Below, in pieces: positions 7,031-45,217 of a stretch of DNA of 64,000 nucleotides (its first letter is position 1; each line of letters opens with the position of its first letter). The stretch covers positions 1-64,000 of the forward strand of contig NZ_JAME01000022.1 in the NCBI RefSeq assembly GCF_000521865.1. The letters are read 5' to 3'. Made by a program: the position numbers and the translations under genes. Below the pieces are notes generated by a model. That model worked only from the letters and a program-made list of their open reading frames with translations, had not been told where the DNA came from and did no database searches. Source of the DNA: Roseivivax isoporae LMG 25204 (GTDB lineage: Bacteria > Pseudomonadota > Alphaproteobacteria > Rhodobacterales > Rhodobacteraceae).

Positions 7031-8101
7031 TCAAGATCGTGCCGCTACCCATATCTTGAATCGCCCCTGGCCGGTCACCTCGCGGATCAGGCCTCGCGCT
7101 TCCATCCAGGCAATATTGCGTTGAACGGCGGCACGGCTAGCGTTGGTCAGGACCTCGCCCATCGGGGTAGAGACAAGGGGCCATTCGGTAAGCACAGCGC
7201 GCAAGGCGCGCGGGGTCTTGCCCGAAAGCGGTGTCATTTCGGCTTCCGCCCGCGCTGACCATGCTTCGACATCGTCTAGGTGCCGCATTGCTGTCAGACA
7301 TGCCGTCTCCATCCCCTCAAGCCAACGCGCCAAACGATCAGCGGGTGGGCCGCCAGCGCGCAGCCCCCCTGCCCCACCCATGGCCAGAGGTGCAAAGACT
7401 GCTCCCTTGCCCTCGCTGGCCGCGATCCGCGCGGCCGTGACTGCCGCTTCCATTCGATCGCCCTGCTGCCCAAGGCCCGCAAGGCTCCAGAGGTGATAAC
7501 CCGCGCAGGCACGGGTTATCGGGTGCAGCTCGGCGGCTTGCGCCATCAGGTTCAGCCAACCGCCCGCGCGATCCGCGAAAGGCTCGGCGTCATCGACCAT
7601 GTTCTCGGGATCGCGACGATCGAGGAAGGCAGAAAGGTCCACCTCTGGGCCTGGTCCCCCTGTCAGACGACGTACCGCCCAACCGACACGCGCCAGTGCT
7701 GCGGGGTCCTCTTGAACGCCTGACAGGCGCATGGATATCCAAATAGCAATGCGATCCGGGCCAATGCGGTCACCCGCGAACCAGCTGAGGTCGGCAGCCT
7801 CGATCAGGGCAAGCCTGTGCCGCCATCCTTCCGGGCTGCGCTTCAGGCGGTCGTCCAGCGCGCCGACGCGACCGGCCACACGGGCAAGACGCGCGGCATG
7901 ACCTGCCTCTGCTTTCCGCCAATCGTCGAGGACCTCGCCTTCACGCAGTTCGGCCCGTGGTCCTGGTGGCAAGTAATCCGGCTCCTCTTCCATCGGACCG
8001 GGCAGGAACCAAAGATCGTCTTCGGACGACTGTTCCACCTCCTCAGCGTCGAGGAAGAGAGCGTCCGATTCATCATGAAAGGCAGGCACTTGAGGCTTCA
8101 T
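7031..8101 (-). CDS. DUF1612/helix-turn-helix protein (RHE_PE00001 family)
   Basis: A 356-residue protein of unknown function, probably DNA-binding. The N-terminal part is acidic (DAEEVEQSSEDDLWFLPG), the middle is alpha-helical (LDDRLKRSPEGWRHRLALIE...). The C-terminal domain has a winged-helix-like segment, PMGEVLTNASRAAVQRNIAW then GLIREVTGQGRFKIW. In alphaproteobacteria this family recurs next to serine recombinases and transposons, and here it is divergent from one at 8328. A truncated second copy lies at 3842-4050. The ATG at 8101 opens straight onto the intergenic region shared with the recombinase. Confidence 0.7.
   Translation of the reverse strand: MKPQVPAFHDESDALFLDAEEVEQSSEDDLWFLPGPMEEEPDYLPPGPRAELREGEVLDDWRKAEAGHAARLARVAGRVGALDDRLKRSPEGWRHRLALIEAADLSWFAGDRIGPDRIAIWISMRLSGVQEDPAALARVGWAVRRLTGGPGPEVDLSAFLDRRDPENMVDDAEPFADRAGGWLNLMAQAAELHPITRACAGYHLWSLAGLGQQGDRMEAAVTAARIAASEGKGAVFAPLAMGGAGGLRAGGPPADRLARWLEGMETACLTAMRHLDDVEAWSARAEAEMTPLSGKTPRALRAVLTEWPLVSTPMGEVLTNASRAAVQRNIAWMEARGLIREVTGQGRFKIWVAARS
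7062..7241 (-). repeat. 180-bp direct repeat, copy 2 (right of mer module)
   Basis: Gap-free partner of 3864-4043, same orientation, inside the 3' end of the intact DUF1612 gene. The two copies are about 3.2 kb apart. Confidence 0.85.
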
Positions 8102-8272
8102 ATGTGCAAAATACTGGAATTTTGCTTTTTACCCAAGGGTTTTGTCGGAATGCGCCCGCGCTCCTTATATTGCATGCGCGCGGCACGGTCTGCCAGAACT
8201 CTCTGATCGCGCTCAGCCTATGCAAACTAAGGGATTTCTGATGAGCAGTGCCACAGAGCACGCTCTTGCATT

Positions 8273-8291
8273 CGTTTACAAACGGTCGTTT
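8273..8291. promoter_or_regulatory. Interlocked dyads upstream of the recombinase (candidate res/operator)
   Basis: The sequence CGTTT-AC-AAACG-GT-CGTTT forms two overlapping 5-bp inverted repeats, each with a 2-bp centre. A further GCAAACGG lies at 8311-8318 and a GCAAACTAA at 8222-8230. It sits between the divergent DUF1612 and recombinase genes, where resolvases normally bind their own recombination and control site. Confidence 0.45.
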
Positions 8292-8327
8292 AGTAGCCAT
8301 ACCTTAAATTGCAAACGGCCCGATTTC

Positions 8328-9209
8328 ATGCCCCTGATAGGCTATGCGCGCGTATCCACAGAGGATCAGACCCCCCTGCCCCAGTCCGAGGCGCTGCAAT
8401 CGGCGGGCTGTGCCGAGATCTTTGAAGAGCACGCCTCAGGCAGCAATCGCGCGCGTCCTGTGCTTGCGCGCGTGCTCGAACGCGTCCAGAGCGGCGACAC
8501 ATTGGTTGTCGTGCGAATTGATCGGCTTGCGCGGTCTCTGTCGCACTTGCTGGAGGTGATCGAACGTCTGGAGGCCAAGGGAGCTTTCTTCCGCTCGCTG
8601 CAGGATCCAATCGACACCGCCTCCCCTCAAGGAAAATTCACATTGCAGGTTCTGGGCGCCGCGGCCGAGTTCGAGCGCGCGCTGATACGTGAGCGCACAA
8701 AGGCCGGGCTTGCCTCTGCGCGCGCCAAGGGTCGCGTTGGTGGCAATCCTGGGCTTCGCACCAAAGACCCCGCCGCGCTGCGCAAGGTGCGGCTGGCGCG
8801 ACAGGACGGCTACATGGAGCGCCTGAACGAAACCGCGCAGGATTGGGTGCCCCACGTGCGACGCCTACGGCCGGATATGGCCTGGGAAGATGTCTTGCGA
8901 ATCATTAATGGCCCCCTGCCCCACGACCGGCACTGGACCCAAAGCCGCCTACTCCGTGCTGTGAAAGCCTATGTCCGTGACGGGTTTCTGCTAGATGAAG
9001 TGCTTGGCCGCGCCGGACGCCGCGAAACCGATGACCGCCTGCCAGCTATCGTGGCTGCCATCAAAGGCTCGGACCCGGAAATCACACTGCAGGCGATCTG
9101 CGACCGGCTGGAATCGATGCGTGAGCGCACCCCTCGAGGCCGCACTAGCTGGCAGCCGTCTTCGGTCAAAATGCTGCTTGAGCGTGCGGAAAAGTTGGGG
9201 CTCCTCTGA
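8328..9209 (+). CDS. Serine recombinase (Tn3-type resolvase/invertase)
   Basis: A protein of 293 residues. The catalytic domain begins LIGYARVSTEDQ with the nucleophile Ser10. It continues with HASGSNRARPVLARVLERVQ, the VVRIDRLARSLSHLL block and EFERALIRERTKAGLASARAKGR, all typical of the resolvase family. About 110 extra residues follow the normal helix-turn-helix position, so the protein is longer than a standard 180-200 residue resolvase. An extended C-terminus is common in recombinases linked to DUF1612 genes. No Tn3-type transposase is in the window, so the parent transposon is incomplete or the gene serves plasmid multimer resolution. An upstream in-frame start would add about 60 non-conserved residues; 8328 is preferred. 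Confidence 0.88.
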   Translation: MPLIGYARVSTEDQTPLPQSEALQSAGCAEIFEEHASGSNRARPVLARVLERVQSGDTLVVVRIDRLARSLSHLLEVIERLEAKGAFFRSLQDPIDTASPQGKFTLQVLGAAAEFERALIRERTKAGLASARAKGRVGGNPGLRTKDPAALRKVRLARQDGYMERLNETAQDWVPHVRRLRPDMAWEDVLRIINGPLPHDRHWTQSRLLRAVKAYVRDGFLLDEVLGRAGRRETDDRLPAIVAAIKGSDPEITLQAICDRLESMRERTPRGRTSWQPSSVKMLLERAEKLGLL

Positions 9210-9343
9210 ACACGACACTTGTGTTGGCCTGACGGATTGCCACTAAATCTAGAAAGTGCTTGCACGAATCTGGGTGGTCGGGCAATAGTCTCGAAAAATA
9301 ACGCGCGGTCACATAAAAAACGCGCCCACGGATCGGGGCAGAC

Positions 9344-10537
9344 ATGAGCGAAGCAGAACAGGATCTAGATATCGCCATCGGGCACTACGCGGAACTTCTC
9401 GCGTCGAACCTGCATGCTCAGCGCGCTGCACACTTCCCACCGGATGCAAAGAAGGTGATGCGCACTTTGACCAGCGGCGAAGCTGCTGAACTCCTTGGTG
9501 TCGACCATACCTATCTTCGGAAGCTTCATCGAGAAGGAAAGATCGTTGACGTCGAGACGACGGCTGGAAGTCATCGTCGCTATACGCTCGACGATATCTG
9601 GGAAATCCGTCAGACGCTTGAAGGAAATGCAAAGAAGTCTGGAACTTACGTGCCTGGACGTCGCGACGGTGACGAGCTTCAAGTCGTTTCAGTGGTGAAC
9701 TTCAAGGGCGGATCGGGCAAAACGACGACGTCTGCTCACCTCGCTCAGCGCTTGGCGCTCAAGGGGTACAGGGTTCTTGCGATCGATCTCGACCCCCAAG
9801 CATCTCTTTCGGCTCTTCACGGAATCCAGCCAGAACTCGACCTCATGGAGGGCGGAACCCTCTACGATGCCGTTCGCTATGACGATCCGGTTCCGATCGC
9901 CGAAGTGATCCGCAAAACCTACATCCGCGGCCTTGATCTTATCCCGGGCAACCTTGAACTCATGGAGTTCGAGCACGAGACGCCTGCTGCGATCCAGCGA
10001 GGCGGAGCGAAGGCGTTCTTCGCGAGAGTTCATGACGCACTCGATAGTGTTGAAGCGAACTACGACGTTGTTGTGATCGACTGTCCGCCGCAACTTGGTT
10101 TCTTGACGATGTCAGCACTTTCCGCGTCCTCGGGTGTGCTCGTGACGGTTCACCCGCAGATGCTTGACCTTATGTCGATGTCCCAATTCCTGCGAATGAC
10201 TGCGGATCTCCTTGGAGTAATCAGGGATGCAGGCGCCAATCTGCGCTTCGATTGGCTTCGCTTCTTGCCAACGCGATACAAAGTCGGCGACGCGCCACAG
10301 ACCGAAGTCATCGCCTTCATTCGCGGGCTCTTTGGGAGGTCGGTCCTGACCAATCACATGGTTGAGTCGACCGCAATTTCTGATGCCGGCTTGACCAAGC
10401 AAACGCTCTACGAAGCTGACAAGAAGGACTTCACGCGTCAGACGTTTGATCGTGCGATCGAATCTATGAACGCAGTGAACGATGAGATCGCTGAAATCAT
10501 CCAGAACACATGGGGGCGGAATGGCAAGAAAGCCTAA
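9344..10537 (+). CDS. repA: RepA, ParA-type partition ATPase of the repABC locus
   Basis: The partition ATPase and autorepressor of a repABC plasmid, 397 residues. An N-terminal helix-turn-helix (LTSGEAAELLGVDHTYLRKL, residues 42-61) precedes the ParA ATPase core. The deviant Walker A motif KGGSGKTT is at residues 121-128, and the Walker B-like VVVIDCPPQLG follows. RepA with RepB moves plasmid copies to daughter cells and represses the operon. The last 17 bases overlap the repB start, so translation is coupled. The 134-bp upstream gap should hold the operon promoter, but I could not fix the boxes. Confidence 0.93.
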   Translation: MSEAEQDLDIAIGHYAELLASNLHAQRAAHFPPDAKKVMRTLTSGEAAELLGVDHTYLRKLHREGKIVDVETTAGSHRRYTLDDIWEIRQTLEGNAKKSGTYVPGRRDGDELQVVSVVNFKGGSGKTTTSAHLAQRLALKGYRVLAIDLDPQASLSALHGIQPELDLMEGGTLYDAVRYDDPVPIAEVIRKTYIRGLDLIPGNLELMEFEHETPAAIQRGGAKAFFARVHDALDSVEANYDVVVIDCPPQLGFLTMSALSASSGVLVTVHPQMLDLMSMSQFLRMTADLLGVIRDAGANLRFDWLRFLPTRYKVGDAPQTEVIAFIRGLFGRSVLTNHMVESTAISDAGLTKQTLYEADKKDFTRQTFDRAIESMNAVNDEIAEIIQNTWGRNGKKA

Positions 10538-11450
10538 ACTTGGCCTGCCGCTGCAGACCCTTCGCAACGCTCCTGACGCTCTTGAAGGGCGCCGACTGCG
10601 TGGCGGTGTTTTTGAGATCGATCCGGCGCAGATTGTTACCGAAGGACGGTTGGATGACAGGCTTCAGATTGACGTTGAGGGCCTGAAGAACTCTATTTCC
10701 AAGAACGGTCAGCGTGTGCCTGTCTTGGTCCGCCCACTGGAAGGCGATCGCTACAACCTGATCTATGGCCGCAGACGCTTGGAAGCATGTCGCGAACTCG
10801 GTATCAAAGTTCGAGCCATCGTCACAGAGGTTGAAGGTGATCAAGCGCTTCGAGATCAGCTTCTCGAGAACCAAGAGCGTCGTGATCTGAGCTTTATTGA
10901 GCGTGCGCTCGTTGCGACGGCACTTCTGGACGGTGATCATTTGGAAGGGGCTGAGCGCACCAATCGAGGTGTCGCCGAAGTCCTTAACCTCCACGAAGCT
11001 GGGGTTTCACAACTCTTGAGTGTCGTTCGGACGGTCGGCGAGGAACTCATCCAGGCAATTGGTGCGGCTCCCGGGATTGGTCGCCCGAGATGGGAAGAGC
11101 TCAAAAAGGCTTTGGGTGCCTACGACGGTGATCGAGACCAACTGCAAGCCGTAGCTCATGCAGCCAAGTCCGAAAGTTCCGGCTCGGTCGATGAGGTTTC
11201 TGAGCGTGCGTTTCTCGCAGTTCTGGCAGCTGCGAAGAGAGCAGAGAAGAAAGCAAGCCCGTCTAGAAAGGGTGTGCCTGCTTTGGCGATCCCCGGTGTT
11301 GGAGCTGCGACGGTCAAGACCGGCCGCCAAGGCAAGCAGCTCAAACTTGATCTAACTACGGATGAACCTGATTTTATCAGCTGGTTGGAGGGCAACGCCC
11401 CAAAGCTGATTACCGAGCTTCATGAGCGCTGGAAGCGTTCAGGAGACTGA
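10521..11450 (+). CDS. repB: RepB, ParB-type partition protein of the repABC locus
   Basis: The centromere-binding partner of RepA, 309 residues. Features seen in order are a conserved RepB start (MARKPKLGLPLQTLRNAP), the ParB nuclease-like N-domain with YGRRRLEACRELG and ENQERRDLSFIERA, and the helix-turn-helix core around NRGVAEVLNLHEAGVSQLLS. The C-terminus is a dimerisation region. It should bind the palindromes found just after repC. The start at 10521 lies inside the last codons of repA. Confidence 0.93.
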   Translation: MARKPKLGLPLQTLRNAPDALEGRRLRGGVFEIDPAQIVTEGRLDDRLQIDVEGLKNSISKNGQRVPVLVRPLEGDRYNLIYGRRRLEACRELGIKVRAIVTEVEGDQALRDQLLENQERRDLSFIERALVATALLDGDHLEGAERTNRGVAEVLNLHEAGVSQLLSVVRTVGEELIQAIGAAPGIGRPRWEELKKALGAYDGDRDQLQAVAHAAKSESSGSVDEVSERAFLAVLAAAKRAEKKASPSRKGVPALAIPGVGAATVKTGRQGKQLKLDLTTDEPDFISWLEGNAPKLITELHERWKRSGD

Positions 11451-11486
11451 GGAAGAGCAACCAACAAGAAGGAGGCACGATACAGG

Positions 11487-11526
11487 CAAAAAGAAAAAGG
11501 CCCCGAGAAGCTAGCTTCACGAGACC
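11487..11526 (-). terminator. Intrinsic terminator of the counter-transcribed RNA
   Basis: The hairpin occupies 11499-11526, with arms GGTCTCGTGAAGC and GCTTCTCGGGGCC pairing with two G-U pairs and one mismatch. On the minus strand it is followed by TTTTTCTTTTT (11488-11498). Confidence 0.85.
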
Positions 11527-11579
11527 TTTGTAAGGTTTCGCACCGGGATCAGCCCGCTACAAAATCTCAGTTTTCGCAC
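11499..11579 (-). ncRNA. Counter-transcribed RNA (incA-type) between repB and repC
   Basis: An antisense RNA of about 80 nt is inferred in the repB-repC gap on the minus strand, the position where all studied repABC plasmids encode the RNA that restrains repC and determines incompatibility. Support comes from a -35/-10 pair upstream (11585-11613) and a strong intrinsic terminator at the far end. The exact 5' end is estimated from promoter spacing. Confidence 0.75.
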
Positions 11580-11584
11580 TTCTG

Positions 11585-11613
11585 AATGTAGCGTTCTGGC
11601 CCCTACCCCGCAA
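11585..11613 (-). promoter_or_regulatory. Promoter of the counter-transcribed RNA
   Basis: On the minus strand TTGCGG (11608-11613) and TACATT (11585-11590) are separated by 17 bp, a near-consensus sigma-70 arrangement. Initiation would fall near 11578. Confidence 0.6.
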
Positions 11614-11663
11614 GCGCAAAGCGATTCGCGGGCCCTAGAATTTTTGTCTTCGTGGATATTTTC

Positions 11664-12875
11664 ATGGAGTACACACCAATCTCGCCGTTTATGCGGCCGA
11701 TTTCGCAGGCCCATTTGCGCGTCATTGAGCGACCCGAGGCATCTGTTCCAGCCAGACCCGTTAACAAGTGGGAACTCCTGCGCGAGCTCTCCAAGGCGCA
11801 AGCGGCCTTTGGGGTCTCGGAACGTGATCTGACGGTTTTGCAGGGGCTCCTCAGCTTCTTTCCGGACGATGCGCTTGGCGGGAACGCCGAGATGGTCGTC
11901 TTCCCCTCGAACAAGGCGATCTGTGAGCGCCTGAATGGTATGCCCTGCTCCACGATGCGTCGTCACCTCGCGCGTCTTGTCGAGGCTGGCTTGCTCCAGC
12001 GGCGCGATAGCCCCAATGGGAAGCGTTACGTCCGCAAGCACGGCGAAGATCGCGTTGCCTTTGGCTTCGATCTTTCCCCGCTCTACAGTCAGTCCGAGGA
12101 GATAGCACGGGCCGCAGAGGCCGTACGTGAGGCTGAGGAGCGCGTCAGGCGCCTGAGAGAGGTCGTAAGCCTCATGCGACGCGACCTCGCGGCCCTCGCC
12201 GAGTTCGGAGACGAGATACAGCCCGGCCTAGGCTTCTGGGATCAGCTTCGCGACAAGGCTGCACTCACAGCCCGCGCGCTTCGCCGCAAGCTTTCAATTG
12301 AGGACCTCGCGGCCTATCGAGCCGACCTTGAAGCTCTCCTTGACCAGGCACGCAACATCATTGATGGCCCTGAAACAGAAGAAATGAACACCAATGATGC
12401 CCATTCTGAGCGTCACCATCATAATTCAAATAAAGAATCTATAGATCTTGAACCTGCTTTAGAAAAAAGCGGGGCGGCGGCGGGTGTGCCAGATGTGGAC
12501 ACGGATGAGCCTGTGGCTGACGTCGATGAACAGGACACAAGACACCTGCCAAAGATCCCGCTGCACCTAGTGATCGCGGCATGTCCCTCGCTTAAGACCT
12601 TCTACCAAGGTGAGATCCGGCATTGGCATCAGCTCTTCGATGCGGCGTGCCATGTGCGGCCAGCCATGGGAATCAGTGCGTCTGCATGGGAAGAAGCACA
12701 GCGGTTCATGGGTCCGGAGCAAGCGTCGATCGTCGTTGCTGCCATGCTGGAACGCTTCGCCGACATAAGATCGCCTGGTGGATACTTGCGAGCTCTGACT
12801 GCCAAAGCTGCGGCAGGCGAGTTTTCCTGTGGCCCAATGGTCATGGCATTGATTGGCCGGCGGAACGCGGCTTAA
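11664..12875 (+). CDS. repC: RepC, replication initiator of the repABC locus
   Basis: The replication initiator, 403 residues. The N-terminal domain has a winged helix (NKAICERLNGMPCSTMRRHL then VEAGLLQRRDSPNGKRYV) followed by a coiled region (EEIARAAEAVREAEERVRRL). The C-terminal domain ends ERFADIRSPGGYLRALTAKA, a hallmark of RepC. In studied repABC plasmids the origin lies within repC. An alternative GTG start at 11652 is in frame; the ATG at 11664 begins the usual first residues. Translation is presumably controlled by the antisense RNA just upstream. The stop codon overlaps the first palindrome. Confidence 0.93.
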   Translation: MEYTPISPFMRPISQAHLRVIERPEASVPARPVNKWELLRELSKAQAAFGVSERDLTVLQGLLSFFPDDALGGNAEMVVFPSNKAICERLNGMPCSTMRRHLARLVEAGLLQRRDSPNGKRYVRKHGEDRVAFGFDLSPLYSQSEEIARAAEAVREAEERVRRLREVVSLMRRDLAALAEFGDEIQPGLGFWDQLRDKAALTARALRRKLSIEDLAAYRADLEALLDQARNIIDGPETEEMNTNDAHSERHHHNSNKESIDLEPALEKSGAAAGVPDVDTDEPVADVDEQDTRHLPKIPLHLVIAACPSLKTFYQGEIRHWHQLFDAACHVRPAMGISASAWEEAQRFMGPEQASIVVAAMLERFADIRSPGGYLRALTAKAAAGEFSCGPMVMALIGRRNAA

Positions 12876-20590: not shown

Positions 20591-23500
20591 ATGTCCAAGC
20601 CCAAACCGGCAAATCCGGCTCTCTCAATCTCCGACACTGACCTCGCCTCTGCCCTCGTGCAGATCGGTGCGGAGGTCGACCACCAACCCCTGCGCAGTTC
20701 AGCGCTGGCGCGCATCATGCGCGAGACGTTTCTTGGCAGCGATGCCGGCGGTGCCTGGGACTGGCGCATGGCATATGACCTGATGCAGGCCGCGGCTGTC
20801 CAGGTGCTGCTGCGTGGGAACGGCGTGGCAGGTGACATCGCCGCTGCAAAGCTGCTTGCCTCGCGGCTGCTGACGGAAACCCGCCGGTCAGAGCAGCAGA
20901 TCCGGCTGCAGCAGTTTTCCACGCCGTTGCCTTTCGCGACCATGGCGGTGCGGGCGGCAGCCGTTCGCAAGGGCGAGACCGTGCTGGAGCCCTCGGCTGG
21001 CACCGGTGCCCTGGCTGCTTTCGCCGCCCGGGCCGGTGCCACGCTTCTGCTCAACGAGATCGACCCCTTTCGCCAGCGCCTCCTACGGGCCCTCTTCGGC
21101 GGCGAGGTGACGGGCCATGACGGCGAGCATATCGATGATCTGCTGCAGACGCCGGTTCTACCCGACGTCGTGGTGATGAATCCGCCCTTCGCCTCCTCGG
21201 TCGATCGGTCGCGGGACAAGCACATCGCCGCCAAACATCTCATCGCGGCTGCAAAGCGTCTCGCGCCCGGTGGGCGGCTGGTGGCGATCATGCCGCCGGG
21301 GTTCACGCCCGAACGCGATGCCGCGCATTGGTCACGCGCCTGCGGTCTCCTGACGCTGCGCTTGGCGTTGACGATGCCGGGGCAGGTCTACCGCAAGCTT
21401 GGCACCTCTGTCGAAACCCAACTCATGGTCTTCGACAAGGTGCAGGAGGACGGCGAGATGATCCGCGCCAGTGTGCGGGATCTGGATGAAGCCCTTCCTT
21501 TTGTCGACGCCGTGGCCGCGACCCGGCCCGAGATGCGCCCCGTACAACAGGCAGCGGCGATCCCTCATGCTCAGCCGACCGTTCCATCATCTACTCCGCG
21601 CAAGGCCGCCGCTGCGCCTGTCGCCGCCTCCAAACCCCTGGCCAATGCCGTCTGTCCGCTCAGCTTCACAAGCTTTGAGACCCCTCGCGACAACACGCCC
21701 ATCTCGGACATCTATGCGCGCTACCGTCCTCAGCGGATCGAGATTGCGGGTGCGCAGGAACATCCCACGCCGCTCGTTGAAAGCATCGCCATGGCCTCTG
21801 TGGCCCCGCCCATGCCCTCAAACACGGGCAGTGATGACTTGCGGCTGCCCGCACGGTTGATCGGGGAGGGACATCTCTCCGAGGCGCAGCTGGAAACCAT
21901 CATCATGGCGCATGATGCCCATGGGCGCGATCTGCCCGGTCGGTTTACCATCGATGACGACCAGACCAAGCTGACGCGCGCCGATGATGACCCTAATGCA
22001 CGGGCCTATCGCCTCGGCTATTTCCTTGGCGACGGCACCGGTTGCGGCAAGGGGCGCGAATGCGCAGGGCTCATTCTCGTGAACTGGCTGGCCGGACGCA
22101 GAAAGGCGATCTGGGTCTCCAAATCCGCCACGCTCATCGAGGACGCCATCCGCGACTGGACCGATCTCGGCGGCTCGCCCGCCGACATCCAGCCGCTCTC
22201 CAAATGGAAACCGGACCAGCCGATCCCGATGGGCGACGGGATCCTTTTTGTCACCTACGCCACGCTGCGGTCCGCGGGCAAATGCGGCACCACGCGACTG
22301 AGCCAGATCCTCGCTTGGATGGGTGAAGACTTTGACGGCGTTCTTGCCTTCGATGAGGCCCATGCCATGCAGAACGCGGCCGGGTCCGAGCAGGGCAGGG
22401 GGGTCAAACCTTCCCAGCAGGGCCTTGCTGGCCTGCGGCTGCAACTGGCAGCACCCCGCGCCCGCGTCTTCTACATCTCGGCCACGGGGGCCACGAGCGT
22501 GCACAACCTGGCCTATGCCGCGCGGCTGGGGCTCTGGGGGCAGGGGCCGGAATACCCCTTCCCGAGCCGCGAGAGTTTCGTCTCGGCGATGGAAGCCGGC
22601 GGTGTCGCCGCCATGGAGGTGGTGGCGCGCGATCTCAAGACGCTCGGGCTCTACACGGCGCGTGCCCTCAGCTTTGATGGGGTGGAATATGACGTGCTCG
22701 AACACGCGCTCACCCCGGCCCAGATCGAGATCTACGACGCCTATGCGGGCGCGTTTCGGACGATCCACCACAATCTCGAGGCGGCGTTGACTGCGACCGG
22801 CGTCAACGACGCCTCGGGGGAAACTAATGCGTCGGCCGCACGCGCCTCGGCCAAGTCCCGCTTCGAGAGCACGAAGCAGCGCTTCTTCAACCATCTCCTA
22901 ATGGGCATGAAGGCTCCAAGCATCATCCACGCCATCAAGGACGATCTGGCGGCGGGCAAGGCTTGCGTCATCCAGGTAGTCTCGACGGGTGAGAGCCTGC
23001 TGAAACGCCGACTTGAGACAATGGACCCGGAGGATGAACTCGTCGAGGGTGCCTTGACGCCGCGCGATTATGTTCTGGGATACCTCGAACAGGCCTTCCC
23101 GATTCATGCGCAAAAGCTGGTCGAGATCGACGGCAACATGGTGGCGGAACCTTTGCGGGATGAGACCGGCGCGCTCGTTGTTTCGCGCGAGGCGCTCGCC
23201 CTGCGCGATGCGGCCATGATGGAGTTGATGACGCTTGCCCCGATCCCCTCGGCGCTGGATCAGATCCTCTGGGCCTTTGGCGATGAGGCCGTGGCAGAAG
23301 TCACGGGGCGGTCGATCCGGCCCCTCAAGGCCGAGGATGGTCATCTCTTCATCGAGAAGCGCGCCGCCAGCAGCAATTCATCCGAAACCCAAGCCTTCAT
23401 GGACGGCGAAAAGGATATCCTGATCTTCTCCGATGCGGGCGGTACGGGCCGGTCCTACCATGCGGCGCAAACGGCGAAGAACCAGAAACGGCGGCGGCAC

Positions 23501-24853
23501 TATCTACTGGAGCCCGGCTGGCGCGCCGATGCGGCCATCCAGGGGCTCGGCCGCACGCATCGCTCTGCCCAGGTCAGCGCGCCTTTCTTCCGGGTCTGCA
23601 CCTCGGATGTGCATGGCGAAAAGCGTTTCACCTCGACTATAGCCAAGCGCCTCGACCAGCTGGGGGCCTTGACCAAGGGCCAGCGCGAGACCGGCTCGCA
23701 AGGCATGTTCCGCGAGGAGGATAATCTCGAAAGCCCGATCGCGCGGGCGGCGCTGCGTGGGTATTTCGCCGATCTTGCCGCCGGGCGCGCTGAGGCGATG
23801 AGCTACGAGAACTTCACGGACTGGACAGCCCTGCGGCTGATCGACAAGGACGGGGTGCTCCTTGAGGAGCTTCCCCCGATCCAGCGCTTTCTCAACCGGG
23901 TTCTGGCCCTGCCGATCCACATGCAGAACGCGCTCTTTGCGGAATTCATGAGGCGGATTGCCGATCAGTCTGAGCGGGCGCGCGCGGCGGGCATGCTCGA
24001 TCTCGGCGTCGAAACCCTGCGTGGCGAAAAGATCGAACAGGTCTCCACGGAGGATCTCTGGACCTGCCCGAAATCCGGCGCCGTGACGCGGATCATCGGA
24101 CTTGAGGTGACGGACCCGGTCCACGTGCTGTCAGCGGATGAAGCCCTGTCGCGCAACCCCGACAAGCTGCCGATGGTCAATCGCGCCTCCGGTCGCGCGG
24201 CGCTCATCTCGGCACGCCCGATGCAGATGTATGACGAAGACATCGTCACGCTGATGCGCAAGGTTGTGCGGCCAAACGGGTCGAGCTACCTGGAGGAGAC
24301 GCGGTTCGAGTCCTCGGCCTGGGAAGACATCGGCAAGCCTGAGTTCTCACGGCTTTGGGATGCCGAGGCAGCGTCCCTGCCAAAAACCACCACAACCAAG
24401 CTCTACCTGCTGACCGGGCTCTTGTTGCCGATCTGGAAGGACATTCCGATATCCAATGAGCGCATCTACCGGGTCACGCCCGATGGGGCGACCGCCATGA
24501 TCGGGCGCACGCTGAGCGAGGAAGGGGCGGCCGCGCTGCGCGCCAGCTTCCTCGTGTCCAACCCGCAAGCACCGCAGGAGATGTTGACCGCCGCCCTCGG
24601 CACCACCGCGCCTGTCGATCTGGGCCGGGGTCTGACCCTGACCCGTCGCCGTGTCGCAGGCGAGATGCGCCTCGAGCTGGGCGGCGCGGATCGGAGCATG
24701 ATTGATGGCCTCAAGGCGCTCGGCTGCTTCACCGAGATCATCGCCTTCCAGCTGCGGGTGTTCCTGCCGCATGGGGACGGGATCGACACGGGAAGCATTC
24801 TGGCCCGGATCGTGGGGCAGGAAGCCGCCATGACGTCAGAACAAGCCGCCTGA
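20591..24853 (+). CDS. Strawberry-notch-like helicase with N-terminal methyltransferase domain
   Basis: A giant 1420-residue protein. Residues about 110-260 form a class I methyltransferase fold: EPSAGTGALAAF at 133-144 and the catalytic-type NPPF at 197-200, as in N6-adenine or glutamine methylases. From about residue 400 a superfamily-2 helicase of the strawberry-notch type follows, with GDGTGCGKGRECAGL near 480-493 (Walker A variant), FDEAHAMQNA near 586-595 (DEAH box) and a C-terminal helicase half with GGTGRSYHA and QGLGRTHRSAQ. Such proteins are conserved in alphaproteobacterial conjugative plasmids; a role in protecting or modifying incoming DNA is inferred. Length and domain order are normal for the family. 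Confidence 0.85.
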   Translation: MSKPKPANPALSISDTDLASALVQIGAEVDHQPLRSSALARIMRETFLGSDAGGAWDWRMAYDLMQAAAVQVLLRGNGVAGDIAAAKLLASRLLTETRRSEQQIRLQQFSTPLPFATMAVRAAAVRKGETVLEPSAGTGALAAFAARAGATLLLNEIDPFRQRLLRALFGGEVTGHDGEHIDDLLQTPVLPDVVVMNPPFASSVDRSRDKHIAAKHLIAAAKRLAPGGRLVAIMPPGFTPERDAAHWSRACGLLTLRLALTMPGQVYRKLGTSVETQLMVFDKVQEDGEMIRASVRDLDEALPFVDAVAATRPEMRPVQQAAAIPHAQPTVPSSTPRKAAAAPVAASKPLANAVCPLSFTSFETPRDNTPISDIYARYRPQRIEIAGAQEHPTPLVESIAMASVAPPMPSNTGSDDLRLPARLIGEGHLSEAQLETIIMAHDAHGRDLPGRFTIDDDQTKLTRADDDPNARAYRLGYFLGDGTGCGKGRECAGLILVNWLAGRRKAIWVSKSATLIEDAIRDWTDLGGSPADIQPLSKWKPDQPIPMGDGILFVTYATLRSAGKCGTTRLSQILAWMGEDFDGVLAFDEAHAMQNAAGSEQGRGVKPSQQGLAGLRLQLAAPRARVFYISATGATSVHNLAYAARLGLWGQGPEYPFPSRESFVSAMEAGGVAAMEVVARDLKTLGLYTARALSFDGVEYDVLEHALTPAQIEIYDAYAGAFRTIHHNLEAALTATGVNDASGETNASAARASAKSRFESTKQRFFNHLLMGMKAPSIIHAIKDDLAAGKACVIQVVSTGESLLKRRLETMDPEDELVEGALTPRDYVLGYLEQAFPIHAQKLVEIDGNMVAEPLRDETGALVVSREALALRDAAMMELMTLAPIPSALDQILWAFGDEAVAEVTGRSIRPLKAEDGHLFIEKRAASSNSSETQAFMDGEKDILIFSDAGGTGRSYHAAQTAKNQKRRRHYLLEPGWRADAAIQGLGRTHRSAQVSAPFFRVCTSDVHGEKRFTSTIAKRLDQLGALTKGQRETGSQGMFREEDNLESPIARAALRGYFADLAAGRAEAMSYENFTDWTALRLIDKDGVLLEELPPIQRFLNRVLALPIHMQNALFAEFMRRIADQSERARAAGMLDLGVETLRGEKIEQVSTEDLWTCPKSGAVTRIIGLEVTDPVHVLSADEALSRNPDKLPMVNRASGRAALISARPMQMYDEDIVTLMRKVVRPNGSSYLEETRFESSAWEDIGKPEFSRLWDAEAASLPKTTTTKLYLLTGLLLPIWKDIPISNERIYRVTPDGATAMIGRTLSEEGAAALRASFLVSNPQAPQEMLTAALGTTAPVDLGRGLTLTRRRVAGEMRLELGGADRSMIDGLKALGCFTEIIAFQLRVFLPHGDGIDTGSILARIVGQEAAMTSEQAA

Positions 24854-40694: not shown

Positions 40695-40755
40695 GATGGC
40701 GGGCGCGTTCAGGATGTTTGCAGCCGCATATTTAGGTCTGACGTGTCGCATTCGC

Positions 40756-41478
40756 TCAGTGTTCTAAGCACAGCGACAGAATTTTTTCGGCATAGACCTG
40801 AGACGCGTGTTCTACCGAGCTCTTCGTCACCAAAAAAACCCACATCAAAAGTCCAATAATTGCGACTCCGCAAAGCAGTGCTCCGAGAACGAACGCAGTC
40901 GACCCGATCTCTAGATCATATAAGAAATATGCACTGCCAAGAGCCACCGTGGTGGTGATTGCAATGCCCAATGGTTTCAACCCGAGCAAATTGCGCGCGA
41001 ACCCATACGCAATGTTCTCATTCAACAAGAGGCTTGCTTCTGTTTGCGGACGGGTGTGCTCAAGCAACCAACGTATTGCTAGCAAGCGGTCATCCTGAGC
41101 GTTCTTTGGGTCCTGGGTCTCATCAACCAAACTCGGCAAGATAATTTTGCTATGTTTCTCAATGTATGAGCGACACCTCGTCTTCATGGTCTTGGGTAAA
41201 CGATCATCGGAAAGGGAAAGCAAAGACGCAGTATGGAGACGTCCAACTCGGCTGCCCAGTTTGCGCTCAACATTTTGACCAGACTTACGCGCCAACCGCG
41301 TCAACGCGAACAGGACCCCGCAAGTGATGACAAATGCAGCTATGGCACCCAATTGGGTCCAAACAGCTGGGAACCAAACAAAGACAAAAAGGAGCGCGGG
41401 CAACAGCGTCAAAAGCGCCGGATTGAGACGGGCAATCCTATCGTAGCGGTCCATACCGAACATCTTATCCATCTGCAT
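40756..41478 (-). CDS. Four-helix membrane protein, third gene of the E2-E1-JAB operon
   Basis: A 240-residue protein I cannot assign to a named family. Hydrophobic segments lie at about residues 21-40 (ALLTLLPALLFVFVWFPAVW), 42-61 (QLGAIAAFVITCGVLFALTR), 169-188 (PLGIAITTTVALGSAYFLYD) and 193-217. The cytoplasmic or periplasmic middle (residues 62-168) is charged and helical. The two-helix, soluble domain, two-helix layout recalls membrane effectors such as S-4TM proteins in bacterial conflict systems, but that is inference from layout only. It begins 17 bp after the stop of the E2-E1-JAB gene, so it is the last gene of a three-gene operon. Its DNA is more AT-rich than the flanking transfer genes. 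Confidence 0.75.
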   Translation of the reverse strand: MQMDKMFGMDRYDRIARLNPALLTLLPALLFVFVWFPAVWTQLGAIAAFVITCGVLFALTRLARKSGQNVERKLGSRVGRLHTASLLSLSDDRLPKTMKTRCRSYIEKHSKIILPSLVDETQDPKNAQDDRLLAIRWLLEHTRPQTEASLLLNENIAYGFARNLLGLKPLGIAITTTVALGSAYFLYDLEIGSTAFVLGALLCGVAIIGLLMWVFLVTKSSVEHASQVYAEKILSLCLEH

Positions 41479-41495
41479 GACCTTCTCGATGAAGA

Positions 41496-43814
41496 TTAGG
41501 CATTTTCGTTTCCTCCGTGTTCGGAGGACAAGCCCACCGCCTCTGCGATAAGCTGACGATACCCAGTTGGGGTTCTAATAATCATCAGAACGGGAAACAG
41601 CTGTCCAATCGCGAGCTTGGCTGCTGTACTGAAATCAATTGCAGAGGGACCAGTGGACGCAAGGTGATTGTGCCACGTTCCTAGCGCGTAGAGAGTGTTT
41701 CCCGAAAATTTGGACAATTGTGCGAGCTGCTCACTCAAACCTTCGGTACCCAGAACAAACTCCGTTTTGGAAAATCTGCTATCGGGCGGAGCTGGAATCG
41801 TATCTACGACTTGGAAGACGTTACCGATGGCCGAGAAGCGCCCGACCAAAACACCGCCGGTTTCAGATCCCGGCTTGCGCGCAATTTCAGCGTCAATCTC
41901 TGTCGTAACCCGGCGGGCAAGCCGCGTTTCAAGCCCATCCATCTTGGGTCCTTTTACGATGGTATAGGGTTCGACGCTGTGGCTTTCCCAATTCTGGGAA
42001 AGCCCATCGGCCTGTAGGTGCCCAATGTTGAATTGCCCACTTTCATCTACATACCTCCCGGAAAGTACGTCGCTTGTTAGCGTCGCGAGCGGAGCCGCCA
42101 ACATAGAAAGCCGAGCGTCTGAGGCGATCATCGAGAAGCTCGAGCATCCTTGACCAATGATGATCTCGTCTGCGCTTTGGCCCATCACTTTAGATCGGAG
42201 AGCGTCGTCGCTACGTAAATGGTGATAGAACTCGGTCATCAGGTCGCTGCTACTGGGGTTGGCGCGCTGGCCTGACACCGAGAAGAAACCAATGTCACTA
42301 TCACCCATCAGGCTTGCTTCCATCACCCGTGGTGTCTTGCCCTGCGCCCAATCTGTAGAGCTCAGGGTTTCCCGCAGAACCGCAGAGGCGGTAGTGTTCA
42401 ATATTGCTTTGGATTTTTCGAGCTTCAGCTTTCTGCGAAACTCTTTGGTACGCAGCACAGTGTTGGCATCAATCCGATACCCATCCGTCTCCTGCGCAAG
42501 TTTGCTGACGTCATGTGCAAATTCCCCAGCCTTGGAAGAGTAGAACATCGAATCCAAATCAGCAGAATACGGCAAGCAGGAATGTCGCGCGTAGTTGTGC
42601 GGTTCCATGGTGTCGTTGTCTATGACCGATATCGGGGCACGGCCTGACCGCGCGAGATGCATCGCAATTTTCGAACCTAAGCTTCCACAACCTAGCATGG
42701 ACCATGAAAGCCATTGCGAGCTGGGATCACCATGCGAGGTTCTTCTTAAGACATCGATCGAGATCGAATCTCTGTGGCCCGCCAAACGGACAATCGCATT
42801 TGATGTCGGCTTGAGATCATCCACAGATTTGAATTCTATCACATATGGGCAGATTTCAAGAGGTGAGGCTTGGCCAATGAGATTGAACGGCCGGCGGGCG
42901 ATCAATATCACTGTGACTGGCAACGCCTTTTTGATGGTATAGCCGTCGAGCTTCGAACGCAGCCACTTCATCCTCTCTGCCAGCATCTTGCCGCAGCCGT
43001 AGAGTTCAGCGCGTTCGTATAACTCCGCAACATTGCCTACTGTCTCTGGGAGATAGCGGTCACAGATGATTGGCTTACCGTTTGGATGCTTGCCGGGCCA
43101 CACAATCAGTCCAAGGCTATATCCCGTCCATTCGTTGTCACTTTTCGGGACCTGTCCAAGGGATTTAAGTGTCTTTTCATCAATTTTGACCTGCTCATCG
43201 CCCTTTAGACAGATTCGATAGTAGGGGTCGGACTGACCCATCTGGGCAAAAACCCAAGTACGGTGCCAAGTCCCGCCGGACCTACGTTTGACCACACTGC
43301 GGATCTGCGAGGCATCTCCAACAATAAGGTCGTTCAAGTGGTCACGCCGAACAAATTCCCAACCATGTTTTGGATCATTTAGTTTCAGCATCGCTGCTCG
43401 ATCGAGCCAATCCAGAAGTTGCTGGAGAAGCGCAAGAATACCGCCCCCGGACTGAATTAGCTCACGTGGAGATCCGAAAACGAGGCAGGGTTCGGGCGCT
43501 GAACCGGCTGCATTTGGCTGTAAGTGAGGATGGGACCGGTCAAAGTCTTCCCGTAAACTCGGGCGCGGTGCAAACAGAGGGTAGGAGACAGGAAACGATA
43601 GTTTGACGGGTTCAACACGTCGTACTCCCGACGGGCTTTCGCCTCGAAACCGAGATGGAAGTTCTGATTTGATTTGCAGAGTCACATCCACCGGACTTTC
43701 GTCATCAGCCCGCGACGCAATAGCTATGCCGATTACTTGAGGGTGCCTGTCCAGTGTGCGAATGGCACGGGCAATGGCTACGGGAACGGCTAGAAGATCA
43801 TCGACGGTTACCAT
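41496..43814 (-). CDS. E2-like/E1-like (ThiF)/JAB triple-domain protein
   Basis: A 772-residue fusion of three ubiquitin-pathway activities. Residues 1-160 fit a prokaryotic E2 (UBC) fold: FPVSYPLFAPRP, then PEPCLVFGSP with candidate catalytic Cys110, then GGGILALLQQLLDWLDRAAM. Residues 366-560 are a ThiF/E1 adenylation domain with the nucleotide loop GCGSLGS (375-381) and VIDNDTMEPHNYARH (conserved Asp and Arg/Asn). Residues 650-772 are a JAB/MPN protease: TGGVLVGR, then TWHNHLASTGPSAIDF with JAMM ligands His715, His717, Ser724 and Asp727. In CBASS and Bil-type systems these roles are split over two or more genes. No ubiquitin-like gene or CD-NTase is nearby. The gene starts 9 bp after the metallo-hydrolase gene. 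Confidence 0.85.
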   Translation of the reverse strand: MVTVDDLLAVPVAIARAIRTLDRHPQVIGIAIASRADDESPVDVTLQIKSELPSRFRGESPSGVRRVEPVKLSFPVSYPLFAPRPSLREDFDRSHPHLQPNAAGSAPEPCLVFGSPRELIQSGGGILALLQQLLDWLDRAAMLKLNDPKHGWEFVRRDHLNDLIVGDASQIRSVVKRRSGGTWHRTWVFAQMGQSDPYYRICLKGDEQVKIDEKTLKSLGQVPKSDNEWTGYSLGLIVWPGKHPNGKPIICDRYLPETVGNVAELYERAELYGCGKMLAERMKWLRSKLDGYTIKKALPVTVILIARRPFNLIGQASPLEICPYVIEFKSVDDLKPTSNAIVRLAGHRDSISIDVLRRTSHGDPSSQWLSWSMLGCGSLGSKIAMHLARSGRAPISVIDNDTMEPHNYARHSCLPYSADLDSMFYSSKAGEFAHDVSKLAQETDGYRIDANTVLRTKEFRRKLKLEKSKAILNTTASAVLRETLSSTDWAQGKTPRVMEASLMGDSDIGFFSVSGQRANPSSSDLMTEFYHHLRSDDALRSKVMGQSADEIIIGQGCSSFSMIASDARLSMLAAPLATLTSDVLSGRYVDESGQFNIGHLQADGLSQNWESHSVEPYTIVKGPKMDGLETRLARRVTTEIDAEIARKPGSETGGVLVGRFSAIGNVFQVVDTIPAPPDSRFSKTEFVLGTEGLSEQLAQLSKFSGNTLYALGTWHNHLASTGPSAIDFSTAAKLAIGQLFPVLMIIRTPTGYRQLIAEAVGLSSEHGGNENA

Positions 43815-43823
43815 GCAGCTGAC

Positions 43824-44996
43824 TCATGCCAAGTCTGACCCACAACCATGAGCATGTGCCTCGACTCCAAGAGCGGACGATGAAGAGATAGCGGCTGCCA
43901 TTTTCAGGGAGGCAACTTTTGGACCATGTTCGGTGATTTCCATCTTCAGCGGCTTGTCACCTTTTTCGTCCTCTAAACACCGGAACTCCCCATTGATATC
44001 CGCTTCGCTCAGAATGGCTTCATATTCCTCCTTTGCGCGGATACAGGGCGGGTCGTTGTCGTCGTCGACGATACTCTTACTGCTCGCGAGGATTATTGCA
44101 CCGCCGTTTGCTTGCGAAAGAGCTGATCGGGCATCTTCAGAAACTACCGCATCTTTTCCCTTTTTGGACCAGCTGTCGTGCGACAGTGACCGCCAAGAAC
44201 AATGATGGGGCGCGATCAATACATCATATGCAAGAACCTCGGGAGTTTCAGAATATTCCGCCCAAATTTTCTCCCAAATCGCCACTTCGGCGTCACCACC
44301 AAACAGGTACTGTGCGGCGTTTTCGGTATCATCTTTCGCAAGCGTAAACTGAGTGATGACACTAGAGTTATTCTTGCTGAGTAACTCCTCTTCGTCTTCA
44401 TCGTCCGTGACCGGCAGCGGAGCCAACAAGACCGCCTTGAAACTGTCATCTGCTACGCCGCAAATCTCGGAAAATGTCTCGCCTGTCTTGATCAGAATTT
44501 CAGCCAAATCATCCGTCTTACCGTCCGCATCCTCGCTCAGGATCAAAATTCTGCTTCCGTCTTCTATATCTTTGTCCTGGCGGAACATTTCAACGCGTCG
44601 ACGCGCTTCTGTCGCCCAAGCCTTTGCGTCAGCGCAAAGTTTGTTGGTACTGCTGGCACGTCTAAAAACAATTGGGGAAGACCACATCTCGCGAATTACG
44701 ATCTTGTCGTCTTCGGGCGACCAATCCTCAATTTTGCCGAGATGAAAATGGTTCTGCAGTCCAGAGCAGTGATCCATGTCCGGATGCGTCAGCAAGAATG
44801 CATCGACAAACAGACGTCCGTCGCTGTCACGGTCAAGCGCTTTGCGAAGCTGTGCTCCAACATCAGGCGCAACCTCATCTTTATCATCAGCAGCGGCAGT
44901 AATATTTATGTCCACGAGAATATAACGGCCACTCTGTGTTTTGATTAGGCTCATGTCACCATTGGCGACTTTGAAATGCGAAGTTTCGACGCTCAT
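43824..44996 (-). CDS. Metallo-beta-lactamase-fold hydrolase (ComEC-like), first gene of the E2-E1-JAB operon
   Basis: A 390-residue soluble protein with the metal-binding motif LLTHPDMDHCSG (His71, Asp73, Asp75, His76), the ComEC-type variant of the metallo-beta-lactamase HxHxDH motif. A distal IAPHHCSWRSLSHDSW and FGGDAEVAIWEK supply further ligands. The N-terminus GDMSLIKTQSGRYILVDINI is the usual first beta-sheet of the fold. The C-terminal tail (SSSALGVEAHAHGCGSDLA) is flexible and unusual. Metallo-hydrolases of this kind are reported in prokaryotic ubiquitin-like operons with E1, E2 and JAB partners (established), but their substrate is unknown. It heads the three-gene operon; a promoter is seen at 45071-45099. 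Confidence 0.82.
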   Translation of the reverse strand: MSVETSHFKVANGDMSLIKTQSGRYILVDINITAAADDKDEVAPDVGAQLRKALDRDSDGRLFVDAFLLTHPDMDHCSGLQNHFHLGKIEDWSPEDDKIVIREMWSSPIVFRRASSTNKLCADAKAWATEARRRVEMFRQDKDIEDGSRILILSEDADGKTDDLAEILIKTGETFSEICGVADDSFKAVLLAPLPVTDDEDEEELLSKNNSSVITQFTLAKDDTENAAQYLFGGDAEVAIWEKIWAEYSETPEVLAYDVLIAPHHCSWRSLSHDSWSKKGKDAVVSEDARSALSQANGGAIILASSKSIVDDDNDPPCIRAKEEYEAILSEADINGEFRCLEDEKGDKPLKMEITEHGPKVASLKMAAAISSSSALGVEAHAHGCGSDLA

Positions 44997-45070
44997 CAGT
45001 ACTGCTCCTTAGCTTGAAAACCTGAGTGACGCGCCTCCCACCGAATCGAACAAGTTTATGCTTTGTTCTT

Positions 45071-45110
45071 ACCATAGTTGATCGAGGATAACCTTTCAAC
45101 AACATGTTGT
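45071..45110 (-). promoter_or_regulatory. Promoter and 12-bp palindrome before the E2-E1-JAB operon
   Basis: On the minus strand TTGAAA (45094-45099) and TATGGT (45071-45076) are 17 bp apart. A perfect palindrome ACAACATGTTGT (45099-45110) abuts the -35 box and could be an operator. The first start codon is at 44996. Confidence 0.55.
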
Positions 45111-45217
45111 GTCTCGCAATAGGCATCATCAAAATTTTAGTACTGACAAAGGTCTGTTTTTAGAACCTGCGCCGCCGCGTTGATGGGATGCGCAGATGTC
45201 CACTTCGTTTCGGGCCA

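What the first reader, a model, noticed from the sequence alone, without database searches (positions are those of the whole stretch)
40756..44996. Three-gene operon: metallo-hydrolase, E2-E1-JAB fusion and four-helix membrane protein
One protein joins E2-like (Cys110), ThiF/E1-like (GCGSLGS) and JAB/JAMM (His715, His717, Ser724, Asp727) domains, flanked by a ComEC-type metallo-hydrolase and a membrane protein, all within 9-17 bp of each other. Ubiquitin-like operons with E1, E2, JAB and metallo-hydrolase genes have been described, and CBASS uses E1-E2 and JAB partners, but this all-in-one fusion tied to a 2+2-helix membrane protein, with no CD-NTase, matches no named defence system I know. 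AT-rich composition and its place between virD4 and the VirB operon mark it as acquired cargo. I infer a defence or regulated-membrane-attack system.
Basis: partly seen in the sequence, partly recalled or inferred. Interest (0 to 1): 0.88.

Follow-up and report, generated by a model that had tools for sequence, protein, structure and literature searches.

The report
Ubiquitin-style phage defence with membrane partner
A plasmid of a marine bacterium carries a three-gene set that looks like an antiviral alarm, in which a metal-dependent enzyme is probably attached to other proteins the way ubiquitin is in our cells, and works together with a membrane protein that may do the damage.

Summary
In detail: three same-strand genes encode a ComEC-type MBL hydrolase, an E2-E1-JAB fusion with all catalytic residues, and a 2+2-helix membrane protein. 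It is not unnamed: two genes match NCBIfam's 'anti-phage 6A-MBL system' far above cut-off, and Iyer et al. 2006 described them as a usually two-gene operon. Two things go beyond that. (1) The third gene is a conserved partner. Of 60 clusters of this membrane family, 56 go with an MBL: 18 with E2-E1-JAB between, 38 without (MBLs mostly of PADLOC candidate PDC-M48B). Pfam, PADLOC and NCBIfam hold no model for it. Twenty of 23 6A loci found through their enzymes carry it or another small membrane protein. (2) 6A MBLs end in a disordered tail with a near-terminal HG, RAG or YG (33 of 34 clusters); E-less MBLs do not (0 of 44). The same pattern marks CD-NTases conjugated by Cap2 in type II CBASS. 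Best reading: MBL and membrane protein are the core; E2-E1 joins the MBL by its glycine to targets; JAB trims and reverses this; the membrane protein is the effector. Conjugation and killing are inferred; an unseen 6A-MBL report may cover them.

The parts
43824..44996 (-). MBL-fold metallo-hydrolase (6A-MBL enzyme), 390 aa; predicted nuclease/phosphodiesterase-class enzyme and predicted conjugated protein
   Evidence: NF058524 416 bits, cut-off 220; AF2 model pLDDT 85, nearest solved fold ComEC MBL domain 9ic4, E 6e-12; H71, D75, H76, D235, H264, H265 invariant in 27 aligned rows
43827..43904 (-). disordered C-terminal tail of the MBL (residues 365-390)
   Evidence: pLDDT < 50 over 365-390; outside the part aligned with E-less MBLs, which ends at residue 357, and outside the NCBIfam match, residues 7-358
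43845..43850 (-). conserved His-Gly (residues 383-384), followed here by six residues CGSDLA that may be trimmed
   Evidence: HG/RAG/YG in the last 8 residues in 33 of 34 clusters with E2-E1-JAB and 0 of 44 without; all four Gly codons used
41496..43814 (-). E2-E1-JAB triple fusion (6A-MBL cap2_3), 772 aa
   Evidence: NF058523 577 bits, cut-off 320; alignment A5
43299..43772 (-). E2-like domain (residues 15-172), active-site Cys110
   Evidence: Pfam Prok-E2_A 1.3e-23; C110 conserved in at least 90% of rows
42135..42701 (-). E1-like (ThiF) domain (about residues 372-560), GCGSLGS, D399, N407, R410, K428, Cys557
   Evidence: Pfam ThiF 7.4e-8; nearest solved relative Cap2, 1.4e-19; C557 invariant
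41577..41930 (-). JAB/JAMM peptidase domain (residues 629-746), E651, H715, H717, S724, D727
   Evidence: PADLOC JAB 3.3e-16; conservation
40756..41478 (-). 2+2-helix membrane protein, 240 aa; partner of defence MBLs, predicted effector
   Evidence: AF2 pLDDT 94.7; no match above cut-off for this protein and no library family matched by more than 4 of 63 members of its family; with an MBL in 56 of 60 clusters
45099..45110 (.). perfect palindrome ACAACATGTTGT upstream of the MBL gene, possible operator
   Evidence: present in 8 of 8 close upstream regions compared, the window included; function untested

Best explanation
This is a 6A-MBL anti-phage system carried as plasmid cargo, and it works on the plan of type II CBASS with an MBL hydrolase in the place of the CD-NTase. 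Shown by sequence comparison: the MBL and the membrane protein are a conserved pair that also occurs without E2-E1-JAB; E2-E1-JAB goes with one MBL clade, and the MBLs of that clade carry a flexible tail with a conserved near-terminal glycine. Inferred: E1 adenylates the MBL's C-terminal glycine, E2 transfers the MBL to lysines of target proteins (perhaps at the membrane), and JAB trims residues beyond the glycine (here CGSDLA) and removes the MBL again. Inferred with less certainty: conjugation primes or places the MBL. On infection the MBL acts on a nucleic acid or nucleotide signal, and the membrane protein responds by permeabilising the inner membrane, stopping phage growth at the cost of the cell.
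For: Both enzymes exceed the NCBIfam cut-offs for 6A-MBL; complete E2, E1 and JAB active sites; E1 nearest to Cap2. Tail: 33 of 34 clusters with E against 0 of 44 without, and last residue Gly 21 of 34 against 1 of 44; tail disordered in the window's MBL; all Gly codons used, so the constraint is on protein; kept while MBLs diverge to about 23% identity with the window's. Jenson et al. 2023 (PMC10097602, passages) report the same with/without-Cap2 contrast for cGAS and show conjugation through its C-terminal Gly. The type II CBASS CD-NTase at the same site in one sister plasmid has the same kind of tail ending in Gly. Pairing: 56 of 60 membrane-protein clusters go with an MBL, against 6 further MBL hits in 613 kb of flanks, one of which (L138) belongs to a 6A operon. 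The third-gene slot is filled in other loci by different small membrane proteins; of four scanned against PADLOC (L047, L048, L014, L044), one matched a CBASS '2TM effector' model and two Csx27, at E 0.0008-0.004, and one nothing. dN/dS 0-0.33 in the three genes.
Against: No conjugation, phage or toxicity experiment was seen. The 6A MBLs are one clade, so the tail contrast amounts to about two changes on the tree, not 78 independent cases; motif classes HG/RAG/YG were chosen after looking. Exceptions: L081 ends PAGFA and L150 ends GFGQVLSER. The window's MBL ends in Ala, six residues past HG; Cap2 also accepts Ala, so trimming may not be needed. Three of 23 6A loci lack a small membrane protein next to them (L049; L149 and L150). 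The membrane protein has no fold match, so pore formation is a guess. dN/dS counts are small, down to 0-4 changes for L059.
Confidence: 0.6

Rival explanations
1. The MBL is the killing effector (a nuclease) and the membrane protein is its anchor, inhibitor or infection sensor. E2-E1-JAB modulates the MBL. The pair would then work like a toxin with a membrane-bound guard.
For: The MBL fold is nearest to the ComEC MBL domain, then PNGM-1 and, weakly, RNase Z. PADLOC MBL models of DRT and LmuA match 25 and 30 of 44 E-less homologues. The pair is conserved whatever else is present. Invariant residues of the membrane protein appear to lie at its cytosolic side (inferred).
Against: In some 6A loci the third-gene slot is filled by different membrane families while the MBL stays, as expected of exchangeable effectors rather than of a dedicated inhibitor.
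Confidence: 0.25
2. E2-E1 conjugates some other protein (a host or phage protein, or an unlinked ubiquitin-like protein), and the MBL tail serves another purpose, such as docking onto E1 or onto the membrane protein.
For: No conjugation was shown here. In 13 of 33 clusters the tail runs on past the glycine. The contrast rests on one clade.
Against: No ubiquitin-like domain was found in the three proteins. Near-terminal Gly kept while the residues after it vary. Same pattern as Cap2 substrates.
Confidence: 0.15
3. The operon serves conjugation (entry exclusion or transfer), since it lies between transfer genes.
For: Position at 40756-44996 between transfer genes.
Against: Four sister plasmids fetched carry unrelated cargo at the same place: type II CBASS, CapV CBASS, ABC-three-component genes, a LysR gene. 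Homologous operons lie in other plasmids and contigs in other surroundings.
Confidence: 0.03

Closest known systems
6A-MBL anti-phage system (NCBIfam NF058523 + NF058524; Iyer et al. 2006, PMC1779556, Table 1 row 6a, passages read)
   Same: Both enzymes, their adjacency and the E2-E1-JAB order, both far above curated cut-offs
   Different: Described as usually two genes; the membrane protein has no model in Pfam, PADLOC or NCBIfam, and the MBL tail lies outside the NCBIfam match
Type II CBASS (CD-NTase, Cap2 E1-E2, Cap3 JAB, effector)
   Same: E1-E2 and JAB chemistry, tail with terminal or near-terminal Gly on the partner enzyme, a varying effector-like gene, same plasmid site in a sister plasmid
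   Different: No CD-NTase among the three genes; MBL instead; E2, E1 and JAB in one chain
PDC-M48 (PADLOC phage-defence candidate, MBL = PDC-M48B)
   Same: MBL beside the same membrane-protein family
   Different: No E2-E1-JAB and no glycine tail; PADLOC's PDC-M48A is a 125-position model that none of 63 membrane proteins matched
BIL/ISG15-like and Bub systems (recalled, apart from BubCD listed)
   Same: Bacterial E1/E2/JAB-type conjugation in defence (recalled)
   Different: These use a ubiquitin-fold modifier (recalled); none was found in the three proteins

Membership tests
6A-MBL anti-phage system | MBL enzyme over NF058524 cut-off (220 bits) | tested here: met
   416.4 bits
6A-MBL anti-phage system | cap2_3 protein over NF058523 cut-off (320 bits) | tested here: met
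   577.2 bits
6A-MBL anti-phage system | the two genes adjacent on one strand | tested here: met
   9 bp apart, same strand
6A-MBL anti-phage system | protects against phage | not testable with these tools
   no experiment; the name in NCBIfam is an annotation
Iyer 2006 operon type 6a | triple module E2-E1-JAB in that order, next to an MBL | tested here: met
Iyer 2006 operon type 6a | usually two genes | tested here: not met
   third gene 17 bp downstream, conserved elsewhere. The paper says 'usually', so this is not a strict defining feature and membership stands.
Type II CBASS | CD-NTase gene | tested here: not met
   none among the three proteins; the rest of the genome was not searched for one
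Type II CBASS | Cap2-like E1-E2 and Cap3-like JAB with intact active sites | tested here: met
Type II CBASS | partner enzyme ends in a tail with Gly/Ala that is conjugated | tested here: inconclusive
   tail found; conjugation not testable
PDC-M48 (PADLOC) | MBL of type PDC-M48B | tested here: not met
   window MBL only 35 bits, against 192-442 bits for three E-less MBLs
BIL/ISG15-like system | ubiquitin-fold modifier gene (recalled) | tested here: not met
   none among the three proteins in Pfam, PADLOC or NCBIfam

The most novel reading that the evidence does not exclude
A metallo-hydrolase is itself the ubiquitin-like modifier, a second enzyme class after CD-NTases to be conjugated by its own C-terminal glycine, made in part as a precursor that the fused JAB domain trims. 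It is the upgraded form of a broader, so far only candidate, two-gene defence core (MBL + 4TM membrane effector), in the same relation as type II to type I CBASS.
Probability: 0.5. Interest if true: 0.82.

Novelty: new variant of a known kind. Interest (0 to 1): 0.68.

Why it matters
It supplies a likely output component for 6A-MBL and a concrete, testable substrate for its E2-E1-JAB enzyme. If right, conjugation of an immune enzyme by its own tail is an upgrade that was attached to unrelated enzymes (CD-NTases and MBLs) in separate systems, which bears on how ubiquitin-like signalling in immunity arose. It also ties PADLOC's PDC-M48B MBLs to a named system through one membrane-protein family found in several phyla.

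Tried and rejected
Rejected: 'no named system'. Transfer or exclusion function. Translational coupling as the cause of the HG codons: all four Gly and both His codons are used, and E-less MBLs that overlap the next gene have no HG. PDC-M48A as the membrane protein: 125-position model, no match among 63. A known fold for the membrane protein: best PDB hits are MotA-type stators at E 0.27 and TM-score about 0.25, not meaningful; viral library E 0.31 at best.

Weak or open: the link of the alternative third genes to Csx27 or CBASS 2TM effectors rests on single weak matches (L047 2TM effector 0.00096; L014 0.0036 and L044 0.00084 Csx27; L048 none; L013, L046 and L152 not scanned). Profile comparison with the main family gave 25% probability for L014, 12% for L044 and less than 1% for L047, L048 and L013. 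L152's relative scored 17.6 bits with the main profile. In library scans of 63 family members the best matches were chance-like: tryptophan permease model 3.9e-5 (4 members), DUF6030 3.9e-4 (1 member); PHROGs was not searched. A first viral-contig scan with P0003 alone found no relative. NF058523 does not discriminate below its cut-off: 387 of 398 genomes rang, mostly over the ThiF part, 6 over the cut-off. NF058524 also rings in 14 of 44 E-less MBLs at E up to 1e-5, best 1.4e-63, member not named by the tool. The CBASS CD-NTase of L140 was meant as a no-Cap2 control but ends FFGD with a small unknown gene beside it, so I do not use it.

Papers: the ten searches found no paper using the name 6A-MBL (0 papers) or PDC-M48 (0 papers), and in their listings I saw none on conjugation of an MBL. 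The library lacks most subscription journals, so a report naming 6A-MBL must be assumed to exist unseen.

Full report
WHAT IS THERE. The window's minus strand holds three genes at 43824-44996, 41496-43814 and 40756-41478, 9 and 17 bp apart. Their GC is 51.7% against 61.8% for the rest of the window. The first product matches NCBIfam NF058524 '6A-MBL_enzyme' with 416 bits (cut-off 220). The second matches NF058523 '6A-MBL_cap2_3' with 577 bits (cut-off 320). The third matches nothing above a cut-off in Pfam or NCBIfam and nothing in PADLOC. In the second protein Pfam finds Prok-E2_A (residues 15-172) and ThiF (372-413), and PADLOC finds JAB (629-746). In 24 aligned rows the E2 Cys110, the E1 GxGxxGS, D399, N407, R410, K428 and Cys557, and the JAB E651, H715, H717, S724 and D727 are invariant or at least 90% conserved. 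A profile of these proteins finds CBASS Cap2 first among solved structures (1.4e-19), and over its JAB part a chain named 'Peptidase' (9ild, 9.8e-11).

THE NAMED PART. Iyer et al. 2006 (PMC1779556; passages read) described operon type 6a: a triple-module E2-E1-JAB protein, in most operons next to a metallo-beta-lactamase, 'usually with two genes'. NCBIfam's name '6A-MBL' evidently derives from that row (my inference). No paper using '6A-MBL' is in the library, so I could not see what has been shown for it.

THE THIRD GENE. An alignment of seven relatives of the membrane protein (A2) was used to scan genome contigs (80 of 94 loci returned) and viral contigs (4 loci). In the 84 loci, 60 clusters at 80% identity were sorted by neighbours found with local profiles. 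Eighteen are MBL-E-membrane operons (2 of them with a second MBL). Thirty-eight have an MBL next to the membrane gene and no E2-E1-JAB adjacent (3 of them with one elsewhere in the locus; one of the 38 is the relic L112). Four have no MBL within 300 bp: L088 lies at a contig edge, L138 is MBL-broken E-membrane gene, and L093 and L130 have an E-MBL pair on the other strand. Six further MBL hits fell in 613 kb of flanks, one of them L138's own. Record titles place the family in Alphaproteobacteria, Beta- and Gammaproteobacteria, Cyanobacteria, a Flavobacteriaceae and a Rhodothermia bin, Coraliomargarita, Holophagales and a Nealsonbacteria bin, and in Staphylococcus, Rhodococcus and Emticicia plasmids. 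The sample was drawn with the membrane protein as bait, so it says that the membrane gene needs an MBL, not the reverse.

The reverse was tallied on loci found by the enzymes. The 31 plasmid records that cover at least 80% of the E2-E1-JAB query fall, by organism and near-identical scores, into 14 groups. I fetched one member of 13; the fourteenth (M. extorquens) is read from the listings. Nine have the same membrane family (in Acinetobacter, L005, as a neighbour on the other strand behind a WYL gene). Four have another small membrane protein (L046, L047, L048; and L044, which is convergent). One has none (L049). Of 9 genomic loci with E2-E1-JAB, four have the same family (window, L010, L012, L153), three another one (L154, L155, L152), two none (L149, L150). 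Together 20 of 23. L015 (under the cut-off, with a split E) and L151 (no E on its short contig) were left out. The other membrane proteins fall in two groups by BLAST: L046/L047/L048/L154, and L155/L152 with L044 joined only weakly (7e-4). In the first group L047 matched PADLOC's CBASS '2TM' effector weakly and L048 matched nothing; in the second, L014 (the same gene as L155's) and L044 matched Csx27 weakly. A changing membrane protein beside constant enzymes is what an effector slot looks like.

The membrane protein itself is predicted with high confidence (pLDDT 94.7, pTM 0.88): two helical hairpins with about 100 residues between them. Invariant residues Y12, A16, P20, G67, Y158, G159, F160, N163 and G166 in 63 sequences lie in sequence near the membrane ends that face the basic, presumably cytosolic, middle part (charge counts; coordinates were not examined). 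No solved or viral fold matches.

THE TAIL. For MBLs in all loci then held I compared C-termini. MBLs under 240 aa, those cut at contig ends and the duplicate loci L001 and L011 were dropped. With E2-E1-JAB downstream, 34 clusters: 33 have HG, RAG or YG within the last eight residues and 21 end in Gly. Without it, 44 clusters: 0 and 1. The motif classes were chosen after looking. The tail is rich in Ala, Ser, Gly and Thr (mean 54% of the last 30 residues against 31%), disordered in the model of the window's MBL (residues 365-390), outside the NCBIfam match, and does not align with E-less MBLs (profile comparison 99.8% over residues 1-357 only). In 13 of the 33, one to six residues follow the glycine and vary; in the window these are CGSDLA. 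Gly is coded by GGT, GGC, GGA and GGG (13, 11, 5, 4), so the constraint is on the protein. Later loci add L149 (HG), L152 (RAG) and one poor case, L150 (GFGQVLSER). A tree of 78 MBL bodies puts the 6A MBLs in one clade that includes L112, which has lost E2-E1-JAB and the tail by what looks like a deletion, since its C-terminus reads like the end of the JAB domain. The contrast is thus about two changes on the tree; the stronger point is that the glycine is kept through a clade whose members fall to about 23% identity with the window's MBL. Motif class goes with E2-E1-JAB type: the four RAG rows have WHSHP, and the HG rows in which the motif is in view have WHNHL or WHSHL, in the JAB motif.

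Jenson et al. 2023 (PMC10097602; passages) found a conserved terminal Gly or Ala on cGAS only in operons with full Cap2 and Cap3, and showed thioester and lysine conjugation through it. A B. cereus CBASS cyclase is conjugated by its C-terminal Ala to PspA (PMC11153139; passages). The Phaeobacter inhibens type II CBASS at the same plasmid site as our operon has a CD-NTase with an Ala-rich tail ending PKGFG.

THE PLACE. An 11-kb query across the operon and its flanks matches 185 plasmid records; one (Sagittula sp. MA-2) covers at least 80%. Of the others I fetched this stretch from four, which carry in the same gap: type II CBASS, CapV CBASS with an XRE regulator, a three-component ABC system, and a LysR gene with a hypothetical gene. 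merA is listed for Phaeobacter gallaeciensis records (listing only). Between the window and four close relatives dN/dS is 0-0.33 for the three genes, on small counts.

E-LESS RELATIVES. The 44 E-less MBLs match PADLOC PDC-M48B models (29, 16, 8, 7 and 5 members for five models), and also LmuA (30) and RTasMBL of DRT (25) at E up to 1e-10; 14 of the 44 also match NF058524 at E up to 1e-5. All 27 rows of the 6A alignment (one of them L112) match NF058524.

CONCLUSION. The operon is a 6A-MBL system in its fuller form. The parts list and comparative data support a core of MBL and membrane protein, with E2-E1-JAB as a conjugation and deconjugation module whose likely substrate is the MBL. What the MBL hydrolyses, what triggers it and what the membrane protein does are inferred.

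Noticed in passing
window 45099-45110: Perfect palindrome ACAACATGTTGT about 100 bp upstream of the MBL start, kept in 8 of 8 close upstream regions; possible operator, no regulator gene next to the operon.
   Followed up: partly
window 40695-45217 and plasmids L139-L142: The gap between the two transfer-gene blocks is a cargo site: sister plasmids carry two kinds of CBASS, a three-component ABC system, a LysR gene and, by listing only, mercury resistance.
   Followed up: partly
L081 and L117, about 7184-10720: MBL of 6A type with what appear to be E1-E2 and JAB as two separate genes and (L081) an MBL tail ending PAGFA; lies beside an MBL-membrane protein pair.
   Followed up: no
L098, L106, L107, L082, L084: An E-MBL module without its own membrane gene lies beside an MBL-membrane pair; the two may share one membrane protein.
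   Followed up: partly
L112 738-2733: 6A-type MBL whose C-terminus reads like the end of the JAB domain: an apparent deletion of E2-E1-JAB with loss of the tail, membrane gene kept.
   Followed up: partly
L067, L070, L078, L115: A second MBL follows the membrane gene; such downstream MBLs fall in a second E-less group (fork 93/86, not strongly supported).
   Followed up: partly
window 20591-24853: 1420-aa protein with Strawberry notch-type helicase domains (Pfam AAA_34 and Helicase_C_4).
   Followed up: no
window 9344-12875: ParA-type and RepC genes (RepABC-type replicon by recall), so the window is plasmid-type DNA.
   Followed up: no
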